Positions 623 through 19,803 of a DNA stretch of 64,000 bases are shown in pieces. A model generated the notes under the pieces. It saw only the letters and a program-made list of their open reading frames with translations. It had not been told where the DNA came from and made no database searches. Every line of letters starts with the position of its first letter. Position 1 is the first letter of the stretch. This DNA comes from Verrucosispora sp. NA02020 (GTDB lineage: Bacteria; Actinomycetota; Actinomycetes; Mycobacteriales; Micromonosporaceae). The stretch spans positions 868,001 through 932,000 of the forward strand of contig NZ_CP054923.1 of assembly GCF_013364215.1 (NCBI RefSeq). Reading direction: 5' to 3'. A program made the position numbers and the translations under genes.

Positions 623-1414
623 TCAGCGTCCCTCGAAGATCGGCTTCTGCTTGTTGACGAAGGCCACGGTGGCCGCCCGGTGGTCGGCGGTGCCGCCGCA
701 GATCGCCTGCGCCTTCGCCTCGGCGGCCAGCGCGTCGGTCAGGGTGCCGGCGTCGGCGACGGAGAGTTGGCGCTTGATCGCCGCGTAGGCCACGGTCGGG
801 CCGGCGGCGAGCCGGGTGGCGAGTTCCTGGGCGGTGGGGAGCACCTGCTCGTCGTCGTCCAGCAGCCGGGTGAGCAGGCCCAGCCGGGCTGCCTCGTCGG
901 CGCGTACCGGCTCGGCCAGCATCAGCAGCTCGACGGCCTTGGCGTGGCCGACCAGCCGGGGCAGCGTCCAGGACGCGCCGGTGTCGGCGGCGAGCCCGAC
1001 CTTGGCGAACGCCATCAGGAAGCTGGTCGACGGCCCGCCGACACGGAAGTCGGCGAGGAACGTCAGCGAGGCGCCCGCGCCGGCAGCCATGCCGCGTACC
1101 GCCGCCACGACCGGCTTGGTCAGGTTGGCGAGCCGGGCGGCGATCGGGTTGTAGTGCACCGCCACGGTGTCCAACGGCCGCCCCGCGCCCTCTTCGAGGG
1201 TGGTCACGTGCTCGCGCAGGTCCTGGCCGGCACAGAAGTTCCCGCCGGCCCCGGCGAGCACCACCGCCCGGATGCTGCGGTCGGCCTCCAACTCGGCGAG
1301 CGTGTCCCGGAGCGCCTCCTTGAGCGCCACGTCGAGCGCGTTCATCGCCGTCGGGCGGTTCAGGGTGAGCGTGGCGACGGCGTCGGTGCGGTCGACGAGT
1401 AGCGGCTCTGTCAC
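623..1414 (-). CDS. enoyl-CoA hydratase/isomerase family protein (PaaG-like)
   Basis: Crotonase-fold enzyme of 263 residues, expected to hydrate or isomerise enoyl-CoA thioesters. The N-terminus VTEPLLVDRTDAVATLTLNR, the oxyanion-hole segment GAGGNFCAGQDL and the later GMAAGAGASLTF are classic crotonase signatures. The long in-frame extension upstream was rejected because the GTG at 1414 overlaps the PaaX stop by four bases (GTGA), giving translational coupling. Together with PaaX this suggests a phenylacetate or related aryl-CoA degradation step, but no other paa genes are present, so the substrate is unknown. Confidence 0.88.
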   Translation of the reverse strand: MTEPLLVDRTDAVATLTLNRPTAMNALDVALKEALRDTLAELEADRSIRAVVLAGAGGNFCAGQDLREHVTTLEEGAGRPLDTVAVHYNPIAARLANLTKPVVAAVRGMAAGAGASLTFLADFRVGGPSTSFLMAFAKVGLAADTGASWTLPRLVGHAKAVELLMLAEPVRADEAARLGLLTRLLDDDEQVLPTAQELATRLAAGPTVAYAAIKRQLSVADAGTLTDALAAEAKAQAICGGTADHRAATVAFVNKQKPIFEGR

Positions 1415-2235
1415 GTGTGGCGACCCTTCTGTCGGGCGATCCGGTGTCCTCCGTCGAGGCACTGTTCGACGTACCGGTCGGCGGCCGGCCGGAGCCGGGC
1501 CGCGTGCCGGTCGAAGAAGCCGGCCGCGGCGGTGCCGGGCCAGCGTTCGGGGAGCAGCGCCGGTGGCAGCTGCGGGTCCCGGAACAGGAAGGTACGCCAC
1601 GCGTGCACCAGCCGGAACCGGGCCGCGTACGCCTCCTCGTCGCCGCTACGTGCGGAGACTCCGCTCAGCAGGGCGCGCTGCTCGGTGACGAACTGCTCGT
1701 ACGCCCGGCCGATCTCGGCGAGGTCCCAGGCCCGACGGACCAGGCCCATCGCGCCCGGCGTCCCGGCGGCGTGCGCCGCGCTGAACCGCTCGAACCGGAC
1801 GCCCGCCTCGCTGAGCAGCAGGTCGACGTCCTCGGCCGGACGGGTGGCCACCCAGGTCTGCTCGTCGAGCGTGCCGTAGCCGAGGTACCGCAGGTTGGCG
1901 GCGAGGCGTTGGCGGTCGCGTCGGGCCGTCGGCGCGTCGAGCACGAGCAGGTCGAACCGCCCGTCCCAGGTGACCCGACCGGTGCGGTAGATCCGGGAGG
2001 CCGCCTCGTCCAGTCGTCGGGCCGCCTTGGGTGTGATCGAATAGCCCGGACCGGAGGTCAGTTTGACCGGTTCGAGCCAGCCTTGACGGACCATGCGGGA
2101 GACCGCCGTCCGTACGGCGGGTGGGGCGATCCCGAGCGGCGCCAGCAGCTTTACCAGGGCGGCAACGGGTGCGCGGCCGCCCCGAGGCCGGAGGTGGTCG
2201 CCGTACAGGTCGAAGAGTGCCGACCGTGCCTGCAT
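1411..2235 (-). CDS. paaX: PaaX family transcriptional regulator
   Basis: Winged-helix repressor of 274 residues with the PaaX layout: an N-terminal helix-turn-helix (APPAVRTAVSRMVRQGWLEP, about residues 36-55), a central ferredoxin-like region and a C-terminal PaaX domain with WRTFLFRDPQLPPALLPERW. PaaX proteins bind phenylacetyl-CoA or similar thioesters and repress catabolic genes. It is the first gene of a two-gene unit with the enoyl-CoA hydratase, which it overlaps by four bases. The 191-base gap to the divergent DUF3117 gene contains an AT-richer stretch (GCGATAAGCTAGATGCTG near 2262-2279) that may hold the promoter and operator. Confidence 0.88.
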   Translation of the reverse strand: MQARSALFDLYGDHLRPRGGRAPVAALVKLLAPLGIAPPAVRTAVSRMVRQGWLEPVKLTSGPGYSITPKAARRLDEAASRIYRTGRVTWDGRFDLLVLDAPTARRDRQRLAANLRYLGYGTLDEQTWVATRPAEDVDLLLSEAGVRFERFSAAHAAGTPGAMGLVRRAWDLAEIGRAYEQFVTEQRALLSGVSARSGDEEAYAARFRLVHAWRTFLFRDPQLPPALLPERWPGTAAAGFFDRHAARLRPAADRYVEQCLDGGHRIARQKGRHT

Positions 2236-2426
2236 GACCGCACATTGTGACAGGCCATCTCGCGATAAGCTAGATGCTGTTACATCAATGCTGCTTCGGT
2301 TTGGGTCCGGCGGTGTTCATCAGGGAAAATCGTTGGTCGACACCTCCCGTGCACATCGCGGGTGGTCATGGCGAAGTGGCTGTGGGGCAACCCACCGACC
2401 CTGGTGTAGGTCTGAGGGGAGACAAC

Positions 2427-2594
2427 ATGGCGGCGATGAAGCCGCGGACGGGCGACGGTCCGCTGGAAGTCACCAAGGAGGGCCGGGGCATCGTCATGCG
2501 GGTCCCGCTGGAGGGCGGTGGCCGGCTCGTCGTCGAGATGACTCCCGACGAGGCGACGGCGCTCGGTGACGCGTTGAAGGCGGCCGCCGGCTGA
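2427..2594 (+). CDS. DUF3117 domain-containing protein (55 aa)
   Basis: Small protein starting MAAMKPRTGDGPLEVTKEGR and ending in an ALGDALKAAAG helix, the complete DUF3117 family length. The family is very widely conserved in actinobacteria (Rv1211 in M. tuberculosis) and its function is unknown. The ATG at 2427 has a good site GAGGGGA seven bases upstream; longer in-frame starts were rejected because they lack conserved sequence. It is followed by a strong hairpin terminator, so it is probably transcribed alone. Confidence 0.9.
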   Translation: MAAMKPRTGDGPLEVTKEGRGIVMRVPLEGGGRLVVEMTPDEATALGDALKAAAG

Positions 2595-2643
2595 AAGAGG
2601 CCGGTGCGTCGGCGACGCTCGCCGCCGCGGACGGTTCGTCACA

Positions 2644-2676
2644 CCCTGAGCCACCGGCTGAGCCGGTGGCTCAGGG
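2644..2676 (+). terminator. perfect 16-bp hairpin after DUF3117 gene
   Basis: CCCTGAGCCACCGGCT at 2644-2659 is followed by one base and its exact reverse complement at 2661-2676. No U-tract follows, as is usual in actinobacteria. It lies 50 bases after the DUF3117 stop and 60 bases before pepA. Confidence 0.75.
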
Positions 2677-2736
2677 CCTTCACACCATCTCGCCGGGCAG
2701 CCGCCCCGCGATCGTCCTCAGGAGGTACGGCTCCGC

Positions 2737-4203
2737 GTGCTCGCCATCCGTCTGACCGCCGAGCCGGACCGGCTCGACGTCCTGGTCCTGCCCGTCCGAC
2801 CCGCTCCCGGCGACGCCACGTCGGCCGAGCCGGTGCCCGCCGGGGCGACGCTGCCCACGGGGATCGCCGACGAGGCCGCCGCGCTGGTCGGGCCGGCCCG
2901 GGTCACCGGCCGCGCCGGTCAGGTGCACGCCCAGGTGCGACCGGGTGGCACCCCCGCCCGGCTGCTGCTGCTCGGTGTGGGCGAGGCGGACGAGGCGGCG
3001 TGGCGGGCGGCGGGTGCCGGACTGGTCCGGGCAACGCGAGATGAGACTCATGTCACAGTGGCGTTGCCGGCGGAGTTGGCACCCGAGTCGGTGCGTGGGC
3101 TGGTCGAGGGCCTGCTGCTCGGTTCGTACCGGTTCCGCCTCGGCGACGACCCGGACGCCCCGACGCTGACCGGGGTCGACCTGGCGGTCGCCGAACCCGA
3201 CGCGTACGCACAGGCCGTCGCCACGGCCCGGACGACCGCCGAGATGACCCGGCTGGCCCGCGACCTCACCAACACCCCCTCCTCGGTCAAGAACCCGGAG
3301 TGGTTCGCCGCCCAGGTCACCGACGCCGCCGCCGACCTGCCCGGACTCCGGGTGCGGGTACGCGAGCCGGAGCAGTTGGCCGCCGAGGGATTCGGCGGGA
3401 TCGTCGCGGTGGGCGGCGGCTCGGCCAGCGGTCCCCGCCTGGTCGAGATGGACTGGCACCCGGCCGACGCCCGGACCCACGTGGTGCTGGTCGGCAAGGG
3501 CATCACCTTCGACACCGGCGGCATCTCGATCAAGCCCGTGCCGGCGATGAAGCTGATGCGCAAGGACATGGCCGGGGCGGCGGCCGTCGTCGCGGCGACC
3601 CTGGGCGCGGCAGCCCTGAAGCTGCCGGTCCGGATCACCACGCTCGCCCCGCTGGCCGAGAACATGGTCAGCGGCTCGGCGTTCCGTCCCGGCGACGTCA
3701 TCCGGCACTACGGCGGCCTGACCAGCGAGACCACCAACTCCGACGCCGAGGGGCGGCTGGTCCTCGCCGACGCGCTGGCGTACGCCGTGCAGGAGCTCAA
3801 GCCCGACCTGCTGATCGACCTGGCCACGCTGACCGGGGCGAACGCGGTCGCGCTCGGCACCCGCATCGGCGCGCTCTACAGCGACAACGACCGGTTGGCC
3901 GGGGACCTGCTGGCGGCCATCGACGCGGCCGGCGAGTCCGCCTGGCGGATGCCGCTGGGCACCGACTACGTCGAGCACCTCGGCAGCGACGTGGCCGACC
4001 TGCACAGCGCACCGACGCAGGGGCCCGGATCCGTGCTGGCCGCGCTCTACCTGCGCGAGTTCACTGGCGAACTGCGCCAGCAGTGGCTGCACATCGACAT
4101 GTCGGCGCCGTCCTGGTGCGACCGGGACGACGCGGAGCTGACCCGGGGCGCCACCGGCTGGGGCGTACGCGGCCTGCTGCGCTGGCTGGCGACCCTCTCC
4201 TGA
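2737..4203 (+). CDS. pepA: leucyl aminopeptidase (M17 family)
   Basis: Cytosolic dizinc aminopeptidase, 488 residues, removing N-terminal leucine and other residues from peptides. The M17 catalytic half is complete: VLVGKGITFDTGGISIKP (first metal lysine and aspartate), KDMAGAAAV, the signature NSDAEGRLVLADAL, and LIDLATLTGA near residue 365. The GTG at 2737 has AGGAGG about 11 bases upstream. In M. tuberculosis the homologue is PepB. It is monocistronic as far as can be seen, and convergent with the O-methyltransferase 28 bases away. Confidence 0.95.
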   Translation: MLAIRLTAEPDRLDVLVLPVRPAPGDATSAEPVPAGATLPTGIADEAAALVGPARVTGRAGQVHAQVRPGGTPARLLLLGVGEADEAAWRAAGAGLVRATRDETHVTVALPAELAPESVRGLVEGLLLGSYRFRLGDDPDAPTLTGVDLAVAEPDAYAQAVATARTTAEMTRLARDLTNTPSSVKNPEWFAAQVTDAAADLPGLRVRVREPEQLAAEGFGGIVAVGGGSASGPRLVEMDWHPADARTHVVLVGKGITFDTGGISIKPVPAMKLMRKDMAGAAAVVAATLGAAALKLPVRITTLAPLAENMVSGSAFRPGDVIRHYGGLTSETTNSDAEGRLVLADALAYAVQELKPDLLIDLATLTGANAVALGTRIGALYSDNDRLAGDLLAAIDAAGESAWRMPLGTDYVEHLGSDVADLHSAPTQGPGSVLAALYLREFTGELRQQWLHIDMSAPSWCDRDDAELTRGATGWGVRGLLRWLATLS

Positions 4204-4231
4204 CCGGCGGCCCGGCCGTGGTGCGCCCAGT

Positions 4232-4906
4232 TCAGCAGCGCACCGCGGCCAGTAGCCCGTGGCCCACCGGCAGCATCGCCGGGATCCAGTTCTCCGACTC
4301 GCGGATGGCCTTGATCGTCTCGCGCACGGTCACCGTCTCCGCGTCCCGGGCCGCCGGGTCACCGATCCGGCCCCCGGCCAGCGTGCCGTTGAGGACCAGC
4401 ACGCCACCGGGCCGGAGCAGCCGCAGCGCGGCCTCCACGCAGGCGGTGAAGCCGGTCGCCTCGGCGTCGACGAAGACCAGGTCGTACGCCCCGTCGGCGA
4501 GCCTCGGCAGCACGTCCAGCGCGCGTCCGGTGATGATGCGGGTCCGGCCGGCGACGAAGCCCGCCTCGGTGAAGATCCGGCGGGCGATGCGCTGGTGCTC
4601 CACCTCGACGTCGATCGTGGTGAGCACCCCGTCGACCCGCATGCCCCGCAGCAGCCAGACCCCGCTGACCCCGGTGCCGGTGCCGATCTCGACCACCGCC
4701 CGCGCATTCCCGGCGGCGGCGAGCAGGCGCAACGCGGCGCCCGCTCCGGGGGTGACCGCGTCGAGTCCGACCTCCCGGGCGAGGCTGCGGGCGGTACGCA
4801 GCACGAGGTCCTCGGTGACGTACGACTCGGCGAACTGGAGAGCCGGGTTCGTCGGACTACCGGAACCGGCGACGGTGGCGATGGGACACCTCCGGGCGGC
4901 GAGCAT
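4232..4906 (-). CDS. O-methyltransferase family 3 (Rv1220c-like)
   Basis: SAM-dependent methyltransferase of 224 residues. The SAM-binding loop is VVEIGTGTGVSGVWLLRG and the acidic post-I motif is VLTTIDVEVEHQ; YDLVFVDAEATGF carries the metal-binding aspartate typical of catechol/caffeoyl-CoA-type enzymes. The ATG at 4906 was chosen because sequence upstream has no family similarity. In mycobacteria the homologue Rv1220c sits divergently beside sigE-rseA-htrA; here the next divergent gene is htrA itself. The natural substrate is not known. Confidence 0.85.
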   Translation of the reverse strand: MLAARRCPIATVAGSGSPTNPALQFAESYVTEDLVLRTARSLAREVGLDAVTPGAGAALRLLAAAGNARAVVEIGTGTGVSGVWLLRGMRVDGVLTTIDVEVEHQRIARRIFTEAGFVAGRTRIITGRALDVLPRLADGAYDLVFVDAEATGFTACVEAALRLLRPGGVLVLNGTLAGGRIGDPAARDAETVTVRETIKAIRESENWIPAMLPVGHGLLAAVRC

Positions 4907-5103
4907 GATGCGCAGGGCGGGTGGGCACTGTGACTCTAGAGGCGGCCCGCCACCGGCGCAGCCGGGCGTCCACCCGCAGTGACAACCGCTGACCCCACGC
5001 GGCACATCCGTGCAATCCTGGAAGCGGTATCCCGTCGACGGCATCGGAGCGGCGTCCGATCGCCGGATCGCGGGACACCGGGGGACGGACTGGGAGGCAC
5101 CGA

Positions 5104-6420
5104 GTGACCGACGGCTGGGACTGGCGCCAGCCCGGCGCGAGCGGCGTACCGGCGGGACAGCCGGTGCCCGGAACTCCGCCGGCAGGCTCGTCGGCGCGCG
5201 AGGGAGGCCCACCGGGTGCCTCGCCGTGGTGGTCCGACGCGCTGAGCGACCCGTGGCGGGACCCGTACGCTCCGACGGCGGTGGTGGTGCCGGCGGCACC
5301 GGTCGTCGGCGCCGAGCCGGAACGGGTCACCGACCCGGACGCGCCCGGACGCTCGAAACTGCACCAGATGCTGCTGGTTCCCCTGCTCGCCGCGTTGCTC
5401 GCCGGCACGCTCGGCGGTGCCCTCGGGTACGCCTTCGCGGTCCGTGGCGGCGCGGCCGGGCCGGTGCTCGGCGCCGCCCCCGGGACCGCCCCCACGCTCG
5501 CCCAACGCCCGCCGGAGTCGCTGGCCGGGGTGGCCGAGCGGGTCCTGCCCAGCGTGGTCACCGTCCGGGTGGCCGGGGTGGGCGGCACCAGCGAGGGCTC
5601 CGGGTTCATCGTCAGCACCGACGGCCACGTGATCACCAACGATCACGTCGTGGCCGGCGGCAGCGGCAAGGCGTCGGTGGTCTTCAACGACGGCAGCACC
5701 GACTCGGCGACCGTGGTGGGTCAGGACCCGGAGTCCGACATCGCCGTGATCAAGGTCTCACGTACCGGACTGCGCCCGGTCGAGTTCGGCGACTCCGACG
5801 CCCTGGCGGTCGGCGACCCGGTGCTGGCCTTCGGGTCGCCCCTGTCGCTGGCGAACACGGTCACCTCGGGCATCGTCAGCGCGCTGGACCGGACCATGCA
5901 GGCCGGCGAGCCGGGCGGCCCGACGCGCTACTACGCCGCGATCCAGACCGACGCCGCGGTCAACCACGGCAACTCGGGTGGCCCGCTGGTCGACGCGGCG
6001 GGGCGGGTGATCGGCGTCAACTCGACCATCAAGTCCCTGGTCGCGGATGGCCAGGAGGCCGGCAACATCGGTCTCGCCTTCGCCATCCCGATCAACCAGG
6101 CCAAGCGGATCACCCAGGAGATCATCGGCACCGGCAAGGCCCGGCGTACGGTGATCGGCGCCCAGGTGGGCGGACCGGGTGCCAACGCCGGCGGATCGGG
6201 TGTCCGCCTCGCCGCGGTGGAACCGGCGGGGCCGGCGGCCGGCGCCGGGCTCCGGGCCGGTGACGTGATCCTGCGGCTCGACGGCCGACCGATGACCGAG
6301 CCGACCGACCTGATCGCCCTGGTCCGCAAGTACGCCCCCGGCTCGGTGGTGACCGTCGAGTACCGGCGGGGCAGCGACCGGCAGAACGCCTCCGTCACGC
6401 TGGCGGCGGATGCGAAGTGA
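5104..6420 (+). CDS. htrA: membrane-anchored HtrA/DegP-type serine protease with PDZ domain
   Basis: Envelope quality-control protease, 438 residues. A Pro/Gly-rich cytoplasmic tail (1-85) precedes one membrane segment (about 89-112), a trypsin-like domain and one C-terminal PDZ domain (about 345-430). The catalytic triad is visible: His181 in TNDHVV, Asp212 in DPESDIAVIKV, Ser291 in NHGNSGGPLV. The GTG at 5104 follows GGGAGG. tatB follows 73 bases later on the same strand. In mycobacteria htrA is co-located with sigE and rseA; neither is present here, so the regulator must be elsewhere. Confidence 0.93.
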   Translation: MTDGWDWRQPGASGVPAGQPVPGTPPAGSSAREGGPPGASPWWSDALSDPWRDPYAPTAVVVPAAPVVGAEPERVTDPDAPGRSKLHQMLLVPLLAALLAGTLGGALGYAFAVRGGAAGPVLGAAPGTAPTLAQRPPESLAGVAERVLPSVVTVRVAGVGGTSEGSGFIVSTDGHVITNDHVVAGGSGKASVVFNDGSTDSATVVGQDPESDIAVIKVSRTGLRPVEFGDSDALAVGDPVLAFGSPLSLANTVTSGIVSALDRTMQAGEPGGPTRYYAAIQTDAAVNHGNSGGPLVDAAGRVIGVNSTIKSLVADGQEAGNIGLAFAIPINQAKRITQEIIGTGKARRTVIGAQVGGPGANAGGSGVRLAAVEPAGPAAGAGLRAGDVILRLDGRPMTEPTDLIALVRKYAPGSVVTVEYRRGSDRQNASVTLAADAK

Positions 6421-6493
6421 CCTCGCAGAACCCCTTCTGGCCGGGCCCCCGACGTGCGTACTCTGGCTGCGGTAGCCGGGGGAGGAGGACGGG

Positions 6494-6928
6494 GTGTTCG
6501 AGAACCTGAACGTGTGGGAGGTCGGCGCGCTGCTGCTGCTGGCGCTGCTGATCTTCGGCGATCGGCTGCCGCAGGTGATCAGCGACGGCCTGCGGATGGT
6601 GCGCAACCTGCGGAACATGGCGCGTAACGCCACCACCGACCTCAGCAAGGAACTGGGCACCGACATCCAGCTCGAGGATCTGCACCCCAAGGCGTTCATC
6701 CGCAAGCATCTGCTCAGCGAAGAGGACGAGCAGGCGATCCGCAAACCGTTGCAGGGCGTCTACGACAACCTCCGGGCGGACGTCACCGGCGTGCACAACG
6801 ACCTCAAGGACGTCGCCACCTCCGCCGACCCGCGAACCCCCGCCGCCACGTCGTCGGCCGCCCGCGCCACCGCCCCGGCGGCGTCCCCGCCGGCCCCGCG
6901 CGCCGCCAGCTACGACGAGATCACCTGA
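6494..6928 (+). CDS. tatB: Sec-independent protein translocase TatB
   Basis: Twin-arginine translocase subunit, 144 residues. The extreme N-terminus MFENLNVWEVGALLLLALLI has the short Tat membrane helix, followed by the hinge FGDRLP and a long amphipathic helix (residues 23-60), then an Ala/Pro-rich tail. The length and the charged linker KELGTDIQLEDLHPKAF favour TatB over TatA. It starts with GTG behind GGAGGAGG. It lies between htrA and the convergent mrp gene, a conserved actinobacterial order. Confidence 0.92.
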   Translation: MFENLNVWEVGALLLLALLIFGDRLPQVISDGLRMVRNLRNMARNATTDLSKELGTDIQLEDLHPKAFIRKHLLSEEDEQAIRKPLQGVYDNLRADVTGVHNDLKDVATSADPRTPAATSSAARATAPAASPPAPRAASYDEIT

Positions 6929-6943
6929 CGGCGCGCCTTCCGG

Positions 6944-8092
6944 TCAGCGACCGGCCGGAGTGAGACCGAGCGGCTTGCCCAGCAGCGACTCCCGGCGCAG
7001 CGCGAGCCGGTCGGCGACCTGGCCCATCGCCTTCGCCGCCGGAGAGTCCGGCGCGGACAGCACGATCGGGTTCCCCTCGTCGCCGGCCTCGCGGACCCGG
7101 GTGTCGAGCGGCACCTGACCCAGCAGCGGCACCTGCGCGCCGATGGTCTGGGTCAGCGAGTCGGCGACGGTCTGGCCGCCACCGGCGCCGAAGACCTCCA
7201 TCCGGGAACCGTCCGGCAGCTCCAGCCACGACATGTTCTCGATCACACCGACCACCCGCTGGTGGGTCTGCAACGCGATCGCACCGGCCCGCTCGGCCAC
7301 CTCGGCGGCAGCGGCCTGCGGCGTGGTGACCACCAGGATCTCGGCGTTGGGCAGCAACTGGGCCAGCGAGATGGCGACATCGCCGGTGCCCGGGGGCAGG
7401 TCGAGCAGGAGCACGTCCAGGTCGCCCCAGTACACGTCGGCGAGGAACTGCTGCAACGCGCGGTGCAGCATCGGCCCGCGCCACACGACCGCGGCGTTGC
7501 CGGCGGTGAACATGCCGATCGAGATCACCTTCACGCCGTGCGACTCCGGCGGCATGATCATGTCCTCGACCCGGGTGGGACGGCCGTCCGCGCCGAGCAT
7601 CCGGGGCACCGAGTGTCCGTAGATGTCCGCGTCCACCACGCCGACGGAGAGACCCCGGGCGGCCAGTGCCGCCGCCAGGTTCACCGTCACGCTGGACTTG
7701 CCCACGCCGCCCTTGCCGCTGGCCACCGCGTACACCCGGGTGCGGGAGCCGGGCTGCGCGAACGGGATGACCGGCTCCTCGGAGGCGCCGCCGCCGCGCA
7801 GCGTGGCCTGGAGCTCCTTGCGCTGCTCGGCGCTCATCACACCGAAGTCGATCTCGACGCCGGTGACTCCGCTCACCGCGCTGACCGCGGCGGTGATGTC
7901 CGCCCGCAGCTTGTCCTTCAACGGGCACCCGGCCACCGTGAGCAGCAGCGCGACCCGGACCACACCGTCGTCGCCGATGTCGGCGGACTTGACCATGCCG
8001 AGTTCGGTGATCGGCCGGCGGATCTCCGGGTCGTTGACGGTGGCCAGGGCGGCCTGGACGGCGTCGTGGACGGTGCTGACGGGAGCTGACAT
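6944..8092 (-). CDS. mrp: Mrp/NBP35-type iron-sulfur cluster carrier ATPase
   Basis: P-loop NTPase of 382 residues that is expected to hold and pass on Fe-S clusters (ApbC/Mrp family). An N-terminal MIP18/DUF59 domain (about 1-85, with VAGCPLKDKL) precedes the deviant Walker A VASGKGGVGKSSVTVNLA, with the two lysines of the Mrp/MinD class, and LLDLPPGTGDVAISLAQLLP. The ATG at 8092 was preferred over upstream in-frame codons because it opens the DUF59 domain directly. It is convergent with tatB (15-base gap). Confidence 0.93.
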   Translation of the reverse strand: MSAPVSTVHDAVQAALATVNDPEIRRPITELGMVKSADIGDDGVVRVALLLTVAGCPLKDKLRADITAAVSAVSGVTGVEIDFGVMSAEQRKELQATLRGGGASEEPVIPFAQPGSRTRVYAVASGKGGVGKSSVTVNLAAALAARGLSVGVVDADIYGHSVPRMLGADGRPTRVEDMIMPPESHGVKVISIGMFTAGNAAVVWRGPMLHRALQQFLADVYWGDLDVLLLDLPPGTGDVAISLAQLLPNAEILVVTTPQAAAAEVAERAGAIALQTHQRVVGVIENMSWLELPDGSRMEVFGAGGGQTVADSLTQTIGAQVPLLGQVPLDTRVREAGDEGNPIVLSAPDSPAAKAMGQVADRLALRRESLLGKPLGLTPAGR

Positions 8093-8166
8093 GCCCGCAA
8101 TGCTACGTCGGTCGTGATCCGCCACCGGCGCCAGCGGCGACGGTGTGAGCCAGTCGATGACCAGGG

Positions 8167-8793
8167 TCAGGAGTGTCGGGGGCTGCCGCTGCCGCGCCGG
8201 CCGTCCCCGGGGAGGTCCCCGTCCATCTCGTCACGGGGCTCGTCCAGCGGGTCGGCGTCGTCCCCCCGCGCCGCCGCACCCTCCCGGAGCCGCCGCTCCA
8301 ACCGCAGGCGCCGCTGCGCCGCCTCGTCCAGTTCCTCGGCCATCCGGGCCAGCTCGGAACGGAGGAAGTCCCGGGTCGCCACCTCACCCATCGCGATCCG
8401 CAACGCCGCGATCTCCCGGGCCAGGTACTCCGTGTCGGCCTTCTGCATGCCCGCCCGGCGCCGATCCTCGTCCAACGCCACCCGGTCCCGGTCGGCCTGG
8501 CGGTTCTGGGCCAGCAGGATCAGCGGCGCCGCGTACGACGCCTGGATGGAGAGGACCAGGGTGAGGAACGTGAAGGTGTACGGGTCGAAGCGCAGGGTCG
8601 TCGGGGCGAGCGTGTTCCAGACGAACCACAGGGTGATGAAGAGCGTCATGTAGACGATGAAGTTCGCCGTACCCATGCCCCGGGCGATCGCCTCCGACCA
8701 GCGACCGAAGGTCTCCTGGTCGACCCGGGGCAACCTCAGGCCGCGCGGTTCCCGGGGCAGGTCCAGCCGCTCGGTCCGCCGCTGCTCAGTCAT
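8167..8793 (-). CDS. DUF1003 family membrane protein
   Basis: Integral membrane protein of 208 residues with two membrane segments (about 44-62 and 77-95) and the DUF1003 core NFIVYMTLFITLWFVWN ... SIQASYAAPLILLAQNRQ, followed by a long charged helix (DRDRVALDEDRRRAGMQKAD) that is probably coiled coil, and a disordered acidic tail. Function unknown. Its start overlaps the end of the upstream MgtE-CBS gene by eight bases, so the two are probably co-translated and may act together in cation homeostasis. Confidence 0.88.
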   Translation of the reverse strand: MTEQRRTERLDLPREPRGLRLPRVDQETFGRWSEAIARGMGTANFIVYMTLFITLWFVWNTLAPTTLRFDPYTFTFLTLVLSIQASYAAPLILLAQNRQADRDRVALDEDRRRAGMQKADTEYLAREIAALRIAMGEVATRDFLRSELARMAEELDEAAQRRLRLERRLREGAAARGDDADPLDEPRDEMDGDLPGDGRRGSGSPRHS

Positions 8794-10096
8794 CGACTCG
8801 CTCCGTGCTCACGTCGGTGGACGCCGCACCGTTCGCGGCATCCGGTGCAGGGCTCGGCACGGCGTCCCGGTCCCGCCAGTCCGCAGGCAGCAGGTGGTCC
8901 AGCACGTCGTCGACCGTGACGGCACCCACCAGCCGGTTGTTCAGGTCGATCACCGGCATCGCGACCAGGTCGTAGGTGGCCATCCGGCGGGTGATCTCCG
9001 GCAGCGGCGTGGCCGGGCGCAACGGGTCGATGTCGTTGACCACCACCCCGCCGAGCAGGTCGGCCGGCGGCTCGCGGAGCAACCGCTGGAAGTGCACCAT
9101 GCCCAGGTAGCGGCCGGTCGGTGTGGCCATCGGCGCGCGGGACACGAACACCTGCGCGGCGACCGCCGGGGAGAGCTGCGGCTCCCGGATCCGGGCCAAA
9201 GCCTCCGCCACCGTCGCATCCGGCGGCAGGATGACCGGCTCCGAGGTCATCACGCTGCCGGCCGTGCCCGGGGTGTACTTGAGCAGTTGCCGCACCGGAT
9301 CGGCCTCGTCCGGCTCCATCAGGTCGAGCAGCACGTCCTGCTCCGGCGGCGGCAGCTCACCCAGCAGGTCGGCGGCGTCGTCCGGATCCATCTCCTCCAG
9401 CACGTCGGCGGCGCGCTCCCGGCCCAGCGCGGTGAGGATCTCCACCTGGTCGCGCTCGGGCAGCTCGCTCAGCACGTCGGCCAGCCGGGGGTCGTCCAGC
9501 GCCGCCGCGACCTCGTTGCGGCGGGCGTCCGGCAGGTCCTGCAACGCGTTGGCCAGGTCCGCCGGGCGCATGTCCTCCAGCACCGCCAGCAGGTTGGCGG
9601 TCCCCCCGGGCTCGGCGAGGCCGCTGAGCCCGCGAACCTTCTCCCACTCGACCTGCTGGAGGTTGCCCCGGCGGGCCAGCCGGCCGGTCTGCTCCCGGGC
9701 CGCCACCCGGGTCAGCGACCATTCCCCGGCCCGGCTGCACTCCATCGCCACGTCCACCACCGTCGCCGCCCGGTTCTCCGGGCCGAGCTGCACCCGACGG
9801 TCGAGCAGCTCCTGGAGCACCAGCAACTCGTTCGGGCGCTTCTCGAAGCGGCGCAGGTTCAACGTGCCACTGCCCAGCACCACCGCGTCCGCGTCGATCG
9901 AGATGATCCGGTTGATGGAGAGGAAGATGCGCCGCCGCATCGGGATCTCGGCGACCAGGCCCACCACCTCGGGCGGTCGCTGACCGGCGCGGAGGCGGCC
10001 CACCGCGTCGCGTACCCGGCCCACCTGGTCACCGTTCGGATCGAAGACGGCGACTCCGGCGAGACGGGCGAGGTAGACCCGAGTCGGCGTGCTCAC
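8786..10096 (-). CDS. MgtE N-domain and CBS-pair regulatory protein
   Basis: Cytosolic protein of 436 residues. It combines an N-terminal PRC-barrel-like segment (LARLAGVAVFDPNGDQVGRV), an MgtE intracellular N domain of helical repeats (LANALQDLPDARRNEVAAAL ... ADVLEEMDPDDAADLLGELP) and two CBS domains at the C-terminus (TVAEALARI ... and VMPVIDLNNRLVGAVTVDDVL). The MgtE membrane channel is absent, so it is a soluble Mg-sensing type protein rather than a transporter. TAGGCT lies seven bases before the GTG at 10096, suggesting a leaderless start; GTG at 10102 is the alternative. It resembles mycobacterial Rv1232c. Confidence 0.88.
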   Translation of the reverse strand: MSTPTRVYLARLAGVAVFDPNGDQVGRVRDAVGRLRAGQRPPEVVGLVAEIPMRRRIFLSINRIISIDADAVVLGSGTLNLRRFEKRPNELLVLQELLDRRVQLGPENRAATVVDVAMECSRAGEWSLTRVAAREQTGRLARRGNLQQVEWEKVRGLSGLAEPGGTANLLAVLEDMRPADLANALQDLPDARRNEVAAALDDPRLADVLSELPERDQVEILTALGRERAADVLEEMDPDDAADLLGELPPPEQDVLLDLMEPDEADPVRQLLKYTPGTAGSVMTSEPVILPPDATVAEALARIREPQLSPAVAAQVFVSRAPMATPTGRYLGMVHFQRLLREPPADLLGGVVVNDIDPLRPATPLPEITRRMATYDLVAMPVIDLNNRLVGAVTVDDVLDHLLPADWRDRDAVPSPAPDAANGAASTDVSTERVDD

Positions 10097-17242: not shown

Positions 17243-19306
17243 TCAGAGCAGGCTGAGCTGTTCGGGGGCGGCCGGGGCGGGCGTGGTCACCTGACGGTGC
17301 TCACCCGGATCCGGCCGGTACAGCCCGTGCCGCCGGGCGGCGATGCGCACCCGTGCGGTTAGCTCCCGTTGGTACGACTGCGGGGCGTACGCCCCGGCCC
17401 GGTACAGCTCCCGGTAGCGGGGCACCAGGGCGGGATACTCCCGGGCGAGCCAGTGCGCGTACCACTCGCGGGCGCCGGGACGCAGGTGCAGCGGGAGCGG
17501 CGTCACGCTGGCCGCACCGGCGGCGGCGATCGCGGCCACGGTGGCGTCGATCGACTCGTCGGAGTCGCTGAGGCCGGGCAGGATCGGCGCCATCAGCACG
17601 CCCACCGCGAAGCCTGCGTCGGCGAGCTGGCGTACGGCGTCGAGCCGCCGCCGAGGGCTCGGCGTGCCGGGCTCGGCCGACCGCCACAGCCGCTCGTCGA
17701 CGAAACCCACCGAGAACGACACGCCGACCCGGGTGACCTCGGCCGCCTGCCGCAACAAGGGCAGGTCCCGCAGGATCAGCGTGCCCTTGGTGAGGATCGA
17801 GAACGGGTTCGCGAAGTCGCGCAGCGCCTCGATGATCGGCGGCATGAGGCGGTAGCGGCCCTCGGCCCGCTGGTAGCAGTCGACGTTGGTGCCCATCGCC
17901 AGGTGCGCGCCCCGCCAGCGCGGCGCCGCCACCTCCCGCCGGACCAGCTCCCCGGCGTTGACCTTGACGACCACCTGCCGGTCGAAGTCCGCCCCGGCGT
18001 CGAAGTCGAGATAGGTGTGGGTCTTCCGCGCGAAACAGTTGTGGCTCACCACTCCGTTGGCGATGAAATCGCCGGTTCCCGTGGTGATGTCCCAAAGCGG
18101 CAGGTCGAGCCCAAGAGCTTCGATCGTTGCGACCTTGAGCCGCGCGCTGCATTTCACCGCAGTGCCATCCATCGACCGCTTGCGGGTGATTGCGGGATCG
18201 GTCAGGTGGAAGAAGCGTAGCCGTTTGGCCAGACCTCCTGTCAACCGCAGGTTGCGAACCCGGTTGGGTAGTCCGTGATCTTCGAGAACGAAGTGGAGAC
18301 CCAGATGACGTAGCGCCGCCGCCGTCCAGCTGAGGATGTCGTCATCCTTGTTGGAGATCCGCAACACACCCTGGCTGCAACTACCTTCGGCGTCGAAGAT
18401 GCCTGCGAGAAAACCGCGGTACCAGTCGTCGTCGGGCTGGTCCGGCCAGACGATTAGCGCTCTGACGGCGTCGACATCGGCCGCTCTGGAAGTGCGGATC
18501 GCCTTCATCGCTCTGCGGTTCGTCCGTGCCGGCGCGAAGGAGAACCAGGTGGTCTCCACTCCGAAGGCAGACAGGTATCGGTGCGTCCGGCGCAGCGCTT
18601 CCTCATCGACCAAAGCAAGCCGAAACCGGTGCACTGCCCCGTACGGGTATCGGTAGGTGCCCAGGTTGCCGTCGCCGCGGATCATCCCGCAGAGGTAGCC
18701 ACGCCGATATCCATCGTTTCCCTTCGGGCCGGTCGCGAAGTGGCCTGTGCCGATCAGGCGGTTGTTCGTCGTCAGGTAGGAACGTCGGCGGTGACCGTTC
18801 ATGGCGCCGATGACGTGTTTCCAACCCCGTTCGGTCAGAAAGCGGTGGTCACCGCTCGCGATCAGTGTTGTTCCGTCCTCGAGAGTGACTCTGTACGCGG
18901 GCTTGGTCGTCGACCACTTGGCCAGCACGGTGGTCACCACGTAGCGGCGGTAAGCGCCCCTTCGTTCTGTTCCGTAGATGTGATCGCCGACCTCCAGCTC
19001 GCGTAGCTCTCTGGTGCGTCCGTCAGCCATCAGGATCGGGGTGTCGCCCGAGAGGCAATAGACGCAGGCATGGCTGCATCCCCGGTATGGATTGATCGTC
19101 CACTCGAACGGGACGCGGGAGGTGCCCGGGACCTTGTTCAGGATGGACTTGGCGCGTACCTCGTAGAAGGTCATGCCGGCGAAGTCGGGGGTGTCGAAGG
19201 TGCGCACGATCGCGTCGGGCAGCGCCAGCGGCAGGGGTGGCGTCGCTGGCGCTGCCCTTCCAGGATCTCCCTCGTCCGGGGGAGCGGCGAGGTTCTCCCA
19301 GCGCAT
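17243..19306 (-). CDS. intein-containing Rv2578c-family radical SAM protein
   Basis: Radical SAM enzyme of the SPL-like Rv2578c family; the precursor is 687 residues, of which 84-423 are an intein, leaving about 347 residues of host protein. The cluster motif CxxxCxxC is Cys77, Cys81 and, after splicing, the residue now at 424 (NPYRGCSHACVY / CFARKTH). Downstream are AMGTNVDCYQRAEG, NPFSILTKGTLILRDL and VGVSFSVGFVD, normal for the family. The ATG at 19306 is chosen because MRWENLAAPP is the conserved opening. The reaction is unknown. Without splicing the protein cannot ligate its Fe-S cluster. Confidence 0.93.
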   Translation of the reverse strand: MRWENLAAPPDEGDPGRAAPATPPLPLALPDAIVRTFDTPDFAGMTFYEVRAKSILNKVPGTSRVPFEWTINPYRGCSHACVYCLSGDTPILMADGRTRELRELEVGDHIYGTERRGAYRRYVVTTVLAKWSTTKPAYRVTLEDGTTLIASGDHRFLTERGWKHVIGAMNGHRRRSYLTTNNRLIGTGHFATGPKGNDGYRRGYLCGMIRGDGNLGTYRYPYGAVHRFRLALVDEEALRRTHRYLSAFGVETTWFSFAPARTNRRAMKAIRTSRAADVDAVRALIVWPDQPDDDWYRGFLAGIFDAEGSCSQGVLRISNKDDDILSWTAAALRHLGLHFVLEDHGLPNRVRNLRLTGGLAKRLRFFHLTDPAITRKRSMDGTAVKCSARLKVATIEALGLDLPLWDITTGTGDFIANGVVSHNCFARKTHTYLDFDAGADFDRQVVVKVNAGELVRREVAAPRWRGAHLAMGTNVDCYQRAEGRYRLMPPIIEALRDFANPFSILTKGTLILRDLPLLRQAAEVTRVGVSFSVGFVDERLWRSAEPGTPSPRRRLDAVRQLADAGFAVGVLMAPILPGLSDSDESIDATVAAIAAAGAASVTPLPLHLRPGAREWYAHWLAREYPALVPRYRELYRAGAYAPQSYQRELTARVRIAARRHGLYRPDPGEHRQVTTPAPAAPEQLSLL
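18038..19057 (-). mobile_element. 340-residue intein with LAGLIDADG endonuclease
   Basis: Residues 84-423 of the radical SAM precursor. Block A starts CLSGDTPILMADGRTRELRE, block B is LIASGDHRFL, and the C-terminal block G is GDFIANGVVSHN followed by extein Cys424, so the splicing residues Cys1, penultimate His, terminal Asn and Cys+1 are all intact. Two DOD-type motifs, GYLCGMIRGDG (203-213) and GFLAGIFDAEG (298-308), keep their acidic residues, so the homing endonuclease looks intact. Three sampled 60-base lines have 60-68 % GC, below the flanking extein, consistent with horizontal arrival. Confidence 0.93.
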
Positions 19307-19398
19307 GACCGCTATTCGAACACACGTACGACACCGCTGCAAGTGGCACGCCGGACACCGTGGTGTGCACGGGCCGGTGGCGGGGGAGGATGGCAGGT

Positions 19399-19803
19399 AT
19401 GGAGAGGTCGACCTTCGTCTACGACGGGGACTGCGCGTTCTGCACCCGCTGCGCCGAGTTCATCGAGCGCCGGATTCCGACCGGCGCCACGGTGCTGCCC
19501 TGGCAGTTCGCCGACCTCGACCGGCTCGGGCTGACCGAGGCCGAGTGCGAGGAGGCGGTGCAGTGGGTCGGCGTCGACGGGCACCGGGCCGCCGGTCCGG
19601 ACGCCATCGCCGCGCTGCTGGCCGGCAGCGGCCGACTCTGGCGGATCGCCGGGGCAGGGCTGCGGTTCCCGCCGGTACGTGCCGTCGCCTGGCCGGCGTA
19701 CCGCTGGGTGGCCCGCAACCGGCACCGGATGCCGGGCGGTACGGCCGCCTGTTCGCTGCCGCAGGAGACGCGCGACCGCCTCTACGGTCCGTCGGCGGGC
19801 TGA
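19399..19803 (+). CDS. DCC family thiol-disulfide oxidoreductase-like protein (DUF393)
   Basis: Protein of 134 residues opening MERSTFVYDGDCAFCTRCAE, the DUF393/DCC signature YDGDCxFC with a C-x-x-C pair, followed by a thioredoxin-like fold. ATG at 19399 has GGGGGAGGA at nine bases; the ATG at 19390 abuts that site and was rejected. Its last 22 bases overlap the end of the convergent HTTM gene. DCC proteins are frequent neighbours of HTTM membrane proteins, so a joint role in envelope redox chemistry is a reasonable inference. Confidence 0.9.
   Translation: MERSTFVYDGDCAFCTRCAEFIERRIPTGATVLPWQFADLDRLGLTEAECEEAVQWVGVDGHRAAGPDAIAALLAGSGRLWRIAGAGLRFPPVRAVAWPAYRWVARNRHRMPGGTAACSLPQETRDRLYGPSAG

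What the first reader, a model, noticed from the sequence alone, without database searches (positions are those of the whole stretch)
17243..19306. Intein replaces the third Fe-S cysteine of a radical SAM enzyme
Seen directly: the intein starts at Cys84 and ends at Asn423, and the next residue Cys424 completes the CxxxCxxC cluster motif (Cys77, Cys81, then Cys424). Splicing and cluster binding therefore depend on the same cysteine, so unspliced enzyme is necessarily inactive. Both the splicing residues and the two LAGLIDADG motifs look intact. This is an obvious place for a redox or metal switch on splicing; that is inference.
Basis: partly seen in the sequence, partly recalled or inferred. 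Interest (0 to 1): 0.72.

Follow-up and report, generated by a model that had tools for sequence, protein, structure and literature searches.

The report
Homing intein inside radical SAM enzyme
A self-removing, gene-hopping protein insert sits exactly at an iron-sulfur cysteine of a bacterial enzyme; it is a known kind of insert, present in some related species and absent in others, and nothing here shows that it acts as a redox switch.

Summary
Observation confirmed. On the minus strand, 19306-17243 encodes a 687-aa Micromonospora radical SAM protein; residues 84-423 are a class 1 intein with a LAGLIDADG endonuclease, and Cys424 becomes the third cluster cysteine. It is not new: NCBIfam models this (NF038136; 908 bits, cut-off 700).

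So 'unspliced is necessarily inactive' does not follow from a missing cysteine; an oxidised Cys81-Cys84 pair would resemble the reported Cys-3/Cys1 trap of the P. abyssi MoaA intein.

A selected switch is unsupported: of 142 genus genes over the family cut-off, 56 carry the intein and 86 do not; the extra intein cysteines vary. The window's intein is more divergent and less GC-rich than its host gene.

New lead: in this genus silent change is about doubled around the insertion point; 31 of 86 empty alleles carry GCG-AGA-AAY-ACT against 1 of 56 intein-bearing. The gyrA intein site also peaks in codon diversity, though there the intein-bearing alleles have the odd flank. Streptomyces-like controls show neither. 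Cause: homing conversion or silent escape.

The parts
17243..19306 (-). Rv2578c-family radical SAM protein precursor, 687 aa, ATG start at 19306
   Evidence: translation; NF038136 908 bits, profile matched from residue 1
19058..19306 (-). N-extein, residues 1-83; C77 codon 19078-19076, C81 (Cys-3) codon 19066-19064
   Evidence: translation; C77 and C81 are Cys in 168 of 169 rows, one gap
18038..19057 (-). Intein, residues 84-423 (340 aa), Cys1 = C84, ends His-Asn
   Evidence: TIGR01445 7.6e-08 and LAGLIDADG_3 1.5e-07 on the precursor; GC 62.7% against 73.9% in the C-extein
18845..18847 (-). Block B histidine, H154 (intein H71, SGDH)
   Evidence: His in 56 of 56 genus inteins; the block name is recalled
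18659..18700 (-). First LAGLIDADG motif GYLCGMIRGDGNLG, D212
   Evidence: Asp in that alignment column in 35 of 56 genus inteins; an Asp somewhere in the motif stretch in 45 of 56
18374..18415 (-). Second LAGLIDADG motif GFLAGIFDAEGSCS, D305
   Evidence: Asp in 56 of 56 genus inteins
18035..18037 (-). C424, the +1 residue; third Fe-S cysteine after splicing
   Evidence: Cys in 169 of 169 rows
17243..18037 (-). C-extein, 264 residues plus stop, rest of the radical SAM domain
   Evidence: NF038135 4.7e-123 on this piece alone

Best explanation
It is a class 1, endonuclease-bearing (homing) intein at the established NF038136 site of the Rv2578c-family radical SAM enzyme. Likely steps: Cys84 makes the thioester with Tyr83, Cys424 takes over the N-extein, Asn423 cyclises, and the ligated enzyme has CxxxCxxC with Cys424 as third ligand (inferred from intact residues and from known class 1 chemistry). 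The endonuclease cuts empty alleles and repair copies the intein in (inferred from intact motifs, patchy distribution and divergence). Before splicing, Cys84 stands in the third ligand's place beside Cys81, so oxidation (Cys81-Cys84 disulfide) or metal binding at Cys84 should block the first step. Splicing may thus be redox- or metal-sensitive as a consequence of the site, without having been selected as a switch.
For: NF038136 908 bits against a cut-off of 700. Splicing residues invariant in 169 rows apart from one gap at the N-side residues. dN/dS 0.15-0.38 between the window's intein and 19 genus inteins. Patchy at one site: 56 intein-bearing and 86 empty of 142 genus genes over the family cut-off; 9 status changes on a 54-genome tree, at least 7 forced by supported branches. 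The window's intein is more diverged than its host gene: intein dS 0.83-1.42 against C-extein 0.40-0.59 in the same 19 pairs, GC3 0.76 against 0.94. Foldseek of the predicted precursor ranks PI-SceI first and lists I-DmoI at a target-normalised TM of up to 0.77. Cys-3/Cys1 redox trap precedent in reviews.
Against: No splicing, cleavage or redox data exist here. The model is unreliable exactly at the junctions (pLDDT under 50 at residues 76-87 and 420-441), so Cys distances cannot be read. Intein and C-extein distances correlate (Spearman 0.76 over 20 genus inteins, 0 of 2000 permutations as high), so much descent is vertical or between near relatives.
Confidence: 0.82

Rival explanations
1. 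A selected redox or metal switch: the host keeps the intein because it holds the enzyme inactive in oxidising conditions through Cys81-Cys84 or Cys84-Cys424 and releases it when reduced.
For: Cys-3 and Cys1 in CxxC spacing here; reviews report such a disulfide control for the P. abyssi MoaA intein; M. smegmatis DnaB and M. tuberculosis SufB inteins are reported oxidation-sensitive (passages). A DCC1-like thiol-disulfide oxidoreductase gene lies divergently next to it.
Against: 86 of 142 genus genes over the cut-off do without it. 18 of 160 genus genomes gave no match over the family cut-off (10 none, 8 partial or weak, some perhaps split by assembly). Cys-3 is kept for the cluster anyway. Other intein cysteines vary (C206 124, C310 136, C386 98 of 169). 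The DCC1-like neighbour is also beside empty alleles (19 of 20 intein-bearing, 27 of 34 empty loci, within the flanks fetched). Redox sensitivity is not universal among class 1 inteins. A Streptomyces gene of this family is inactivated by the Samy prophage in its native host, which the authors take to mean little fitness cost (PMC12924846, passages).
Confidence: 0.12
2. Cluster lock: a [4Fe-4S] cluster (or zinc) binds C77, C81 and intein Cys1 in the precursor, ties up the nucleophile and stops splicing until the metal leaves.
For: The precursor has the whole CxxxCxxC motif with Cys1 as third ligand; reversible zinc inhibition of a DnaB intein is published (title and start of abstract in a listing).
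Against: No data on this intein; splicing may be faster than cluster loading; the junction is not resolved in the model.
Confidence: 0.15
3. A decayed intein that no longer splices, leaving a dead enzyme.
For: Some relatives look broken (L088 in pieces in different frames, L090 lacking its N-terminal part); 11 of 56 genus inteins have no Asp in the first LAGLIDADG stretch, though that concerns the endonuclease, not splicing.
Against: Open frame, splice residues intact, dN/dS 0.15-0.38.
Confidence: 0.03

Closest known systems
NCBIfam NF038136, intein-containing Rv2578c family radical SAM protein
   Same: Same host family, same site, near whole-length match (residues 1-662, 908 bits)
   Different: Only in detail: 340-aa intein, where the model's intein part is 259 positions; no experimental work on this family was seen in two paper searches
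Pyrococcus abyssi MoaA intein
   Same: Radical SAM host (recalled); Cys-3 and intein Cys1 in the same spacing as C81 and C84, reported to form a disulfide that controls splicing (review passages)
   Different: Different radical SAM family and domain of life. That it sits at MoaA's third cluster cysteine is my inference from the Cys-3 spacing; its sequence was not fetched, and Callahan 2011 is not held
Mycobacterial SufB intein
   Same: Intein in an Fe-S protein, reported oxidation-sensitive (passages)
   Different: Host is an Fe-S scaffold, not a radical SAM enzyme
PI-SceI / I-DmoI LAGLIDADG endonucleases
   Same: Top structure matches of the model
   Different: Cleavage by this intein is untested

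Membership tests
NF038136 | Curated whole-protein cut-off of 700 bits | tested here: met
   908.3 bits
Class 1 intein | Cys/Ser at position 1, block B His, C-terminal His-Asn, Cys/Ser/Thr at +1 (features recalled, partly in passages) | tested here: met
   C84, H154, H422-N423, C424; block B reads SGDH, not TxxH
Class 1 intein | Precursor splices itself | not testable with these tools
   needs expression
LAGLIDADG homing intein | Two LAGLIDADG motifs with acidic residues | tested here: met
   D212 and D305; PF14528 32.0 bits against a cut-off of 22.5, for the second motif region
LAGLIDADG homing intein | Cuts the empty allele and homes | not testable with these tools
   patchiness is only circumstantial
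Radical SAM enzyme | CxxxCxxC with a radical SAM domain | tested here: met
   PF04055 45.5 bits against 29.5; in the ligated enzyme the third Cys is C424
Redox-switched intein (MoaA type) | Cys at -3 and at 1 | tested here: met
   C81 and C84
Redox-switched intein (MoaA type) | Disulfide forms and blocks splicing | not testable with these tools
   needs biochemistry; junction pLDDT under 50

The most novel reading that the evidence does not exclude
In Micromonospora, intein-free copies of this gene have evolved silent immunity to homing: the protein motif cannot change, so the DNA around the cut site is recoded synonymously (often into the rare block GCG-AGA-AAY-ACT), while inteins persist in, or bring along by co-conversion, the ordinary coding. 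Related pressure marks the gyrA intein site. This would be a codon-level arms race readable from genomes alone.
Probability: 0.33. Interest if true: 0.66.

Novelty: new member of a known kind. Interest (0 to 1): 0.4.

Why it matters
The intein itself is ordinary, but its position makes an open question testable: whether inteins in redox enzymes are regulators or parasites. The genus offers 56 intein-bearing and 86 empty natural alleles in the genomes searched. The missed point, that intein Cys1 completes the cluster motif, gives a sharp experiment on competition between Fe-S loading and splicing. The silent-codon signal, if caused by homing, would qualify the published idea that conserved protein sites make immunity to the endonuclease hard to evolve (PMC2814812, passages).

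Tried and rejected
Rejected: chance or mis-framing. Rejected: a conserved extra cysteine pair inside the intein (in the 56 genus inteins one extra Cys, intein position 227, is kept in 54 and another, 123, in 35).

Tried: structure of the precursor (mean pLDDT 75.6, pTM 0.50; junctions under 50), so no Cys distances.

Tried for the codon block: phage attachment core. 0 viral contigs hold GCGAGAAAYACTCACAC. Phage records gave 94 weak matches, of which 15 were listed, the best of those at E 1e-2. The wider pattern with up to one mismatch occurs once each in 42 of 160 genus genomes, so no second att copy was seen. Not excluded: an 8.2-kb element sits at the same codons in one Streptomyces-like genome (L189), and the Samy phage integrates in this gene family (PMC12924846, passages; exact codon not seen).

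Results against the silent-immunity reading: intein-bearing alleles also show fast silent change, above all N-terminal of the site. At gyrA it is the intein-bearing alleles that carry the lowest-GC3 flank, opposite to this gene's C side, and only the -12..-1 window peaks there (of three looked at; -6 ranks 65 and 0 ranks 252 of 688 in empty alleles). 40 empty alleles of family f22, where 11 of 133 genes over the cut-off carry the intein, show no GC3 dip (rank 67 of 264). The tree-corrected pair test is only suggestive (on average 5.1 of 13 pairs in the expected direction, 0 against, 7.9 ties; median p 0.0625); the broader AT-flank versions were weaker (median p 0.219 and 0.375). The tree comes from the C-extein, so recombination at the site would also raise the counts. 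Haloarchaeal LAGLIDADG endonucleases tolerate substitutions (PMC10643990, passages). Co-conversion alone could explain much.

Papers: no work on this intein was seen (20 papers, none holding both 'intein' and 'Rv2578c' by its counts; 4 papers, titles unrelated), and none on synonymous escape from an intein in the listings (2 listed; 9 listed; 10 of 19 listed), judged by title, start of abstract and, for four papers, passages. A yeast homing element with cleavage-resistant host alleles is known (PMC7282813, passages).

Full report
WHAT IS THERE. The frame runs on the minus strand from ATG 19306 to the stop at 17243-17245, 687 residues. NCBIfam NF038136, 'intein-containing Rv2578c family radical SAM protein', covers residues 1-662 with 908 bits against a cut-off of 700. 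The intein is residues 84-423 (19057..18038). It begins with Cys84, ends His422-Asn423, and is followed by Cys424. Both LAGLIDADG blocks have their aspartates, D212 and D305. The genus is Micromonospora by the names of the near homologues (the nearest named one is Verrucosispora sp. WMMA2044, then Micromonospora species). Two further inteins of this genome were read, in GyrA and in a PhoH-like protein (named by my reading of the sequence).

CONSERVATION. In 169 aligned homologues (the identical copy dropped) C77, C81 and C84 are Cys in 168 with one gap, and H422, N423 and C424 are invariant. Cysteines elsewhere in the intein vary: C206 in 124, C310 in 136, C386 in 98 of 169. Against 19 other genus inteins the window's intein has dN/dS 0.15-0.38, so the element is under constraint. 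The first LAGLIDADG Asp is in its column in 35 of 56 genus inteins, and an Asp is somewhere in that stretch in 45 of 56; the second is kept in 56 of 56.

THE POINT MISSED. In the precursor the sequence is C77-SHA-C81-VY-C84. The third cysteine is present: it is intein Cys1. After splicing Cys424 takes the place. So the precursor lacks chain continuity, not a cysteine. C81 is Cys-3, and the P. abyssi MoaA intein, also in a radical SAM enzyme (general knowledge), is reported to form a Cys-3/Cys1 disulfide that blocks splicing (passages in PMC10663303 and PMC3922620; the original paper is not held). Redox sensitivity is therefore plausible, and so is metal or cluster binding at Cys1. Neither was testable here. 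The predicted precursor has pLDDT under 50 at 76-87 and 420-441.

MOBILE ELEMENT OR REGULATOR. Of 160 genus genomes, 142 have a match over the family cut-off; by length, and by the junction motif found in all 142, 56 carry the intein and 86 are empty. Ten have no match and eight only partial or weak ones, so the gene is sometimes missing, incomplete or split by assembly. On a careful tree of 54 genomes intein status changes 9 times, at least 7 forced by supported branches (shuffled mean 16.4, 0 of 500 as low, so status is also clustered). The window's intein differs from the 19 others at dS 0.83-1.42 while the C-exteins of the same pairs differ at 0.40-0.59, and its GC3 is 0.76 against 0.94. 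That fits arrival from a more distant donor. Against it, intein and C-extein distances correlate (Spearman 0.76). Elsewhere: 14 of 396 phylum genomes exceed the NF038136 cut-off and others with full-length matches fall below it; by length none of 61 Streptomyces-like genes over the NF038135 cut-off and none of 52 g8 genes carries it; 11 of 133 in family f22 do, three of them mini-inteins of 160-162 aa.

SILENT-CODON SIGNAL. Around the insertion point the codons are unusual in this genus. For 86 empty alleles GC3 at codons -8..+9 is 0.664 against 0.935 in codons 20-199; the window -6..+5 has the lowest amino-acid-corrected GC3 of 264 windows. Arg at codon +3 is AGA in 37 of 86 empty alleles; elsewhere in the same genes AGA is 15 of 3158 Arg codons; in intein-bearing alleles it is 3 of 56 at +3. 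The exact block GCG-AGA-AAY-ACT is in 31 of 86 empty, 1 of 56 intein-bearing and 0 of 37 Streptomyces-like alleles. AGA or AGG at +3: 43 of 86 against 5 of 56, Fisher p 2e-07, not corrected for relatedness. Corrected by independent pairs on supported branches: on average 5.1 of 13 pairs in the expected direction, none against, 7.9 ties, median p 0.0625. On the 142-genome tree third positions at -9..+10 change 19.9 times per 100 rows against 10.4 overall; window -6..+5 ranks 1 of 283 for all rows, 2 of 281 for the empty ones and 1 of 283 for the intein-bearing ones. 0 of 20000 position shuffles reach the all-rows value, a test that ignores linkage. Intein-bearing alleles with inteins of 338 aa or more (30) show the GC3 dip (rank 1 of 264); those under 338 aa (26) do not (rank 34), a contrast that may reflect ancestry. 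Controls: Streptomyces-like 37 genes rank 77 of 264, f22 40 empty genes rank 67, g8 30 genes rank 166. Most control genes were the best-scoring matches, not random draws.

SECOND SITE, GYRA. After seeing this I looked at the gyrA intein site as a second test. In the first 30 empty alleles, and then in 70 (30 best-scoring plus 40 more of 94 full-length ones listed), the 12 codons before the site have the highest codon diversity of 688 windows; in 30 Streptomyces-like genes the same window ranks 223. Two other windows looked at, -6..+5 and 0..+11, do not peak (ranks 65 and 252). There, moreover, the 20 intein-bearing alleles examined carry the lowest-GC3 flank, which looks like co-conversion of donor DNA. 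So homing is the likely common cause, but co-conversion and silent escape cannot yet be told apart.

VERDICT. Observation confirmed; the system is a new member of a known kind; the redox switch remains an analogy; the silent-codon pattern is the part that would surprise a specialist if it holds.

Noticed in passing
window 18035-19084 and loci L004-L023, L026-L033, L060, L063-L087, L096-L121 (18 of these), L153-L188, L191-L224: Codons around the intein insertion point change silently about twice as fast as the gene average in this genus, and 31 of 86 empty alleles carry a rare GCG-AGA-AAY-ACT block (1 of 56 intein-bearing).
   Followed up: yes
L313-L342, L373-L432 (gyrA): The 12 codons before the gyrA intein site are the most codon-diverse window of gyrA in 70 empty Micromonospora alleles, not in 30 Streptomyces-like ones; 20 intein-bearing alleles have the lowest-GC3 flank there.
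   Followed up: partly
L189, about 1000-9210: In one Streptomyces-like genome an 8.2-kb element with a tyrosine-integrase-like frame (by my reading, no family search) interrupts the same gene exactly at the CVY|C codons, with the short repeat TGCGTGTACT at both ends.
   Followed up: partly
L001 (GyrA) and L002 (PhoH-like): Two further LAGLIDADG-bearing inteins in the window's own genome (host names by my reading).
   Followed up: partly
L295, L296, L298: Mini-inteins of 160-162 aa, without room for the endonuclease, at the same site in another actinobacterial family.
   Followed up: no
window 19360-19803 (+): DCC1-like thiol-disulfide oxidoreductase gene divergent from the radical SAM gene, also found beside empty alleles (19 of 20 intein-bearing and 27 of 34 empty loci, within the flanks fetched).
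   Followed up: partly
L088 and L090: Copies of the radical SAM gene in pieces or truncated in two genus relatives.
   Followed up: no
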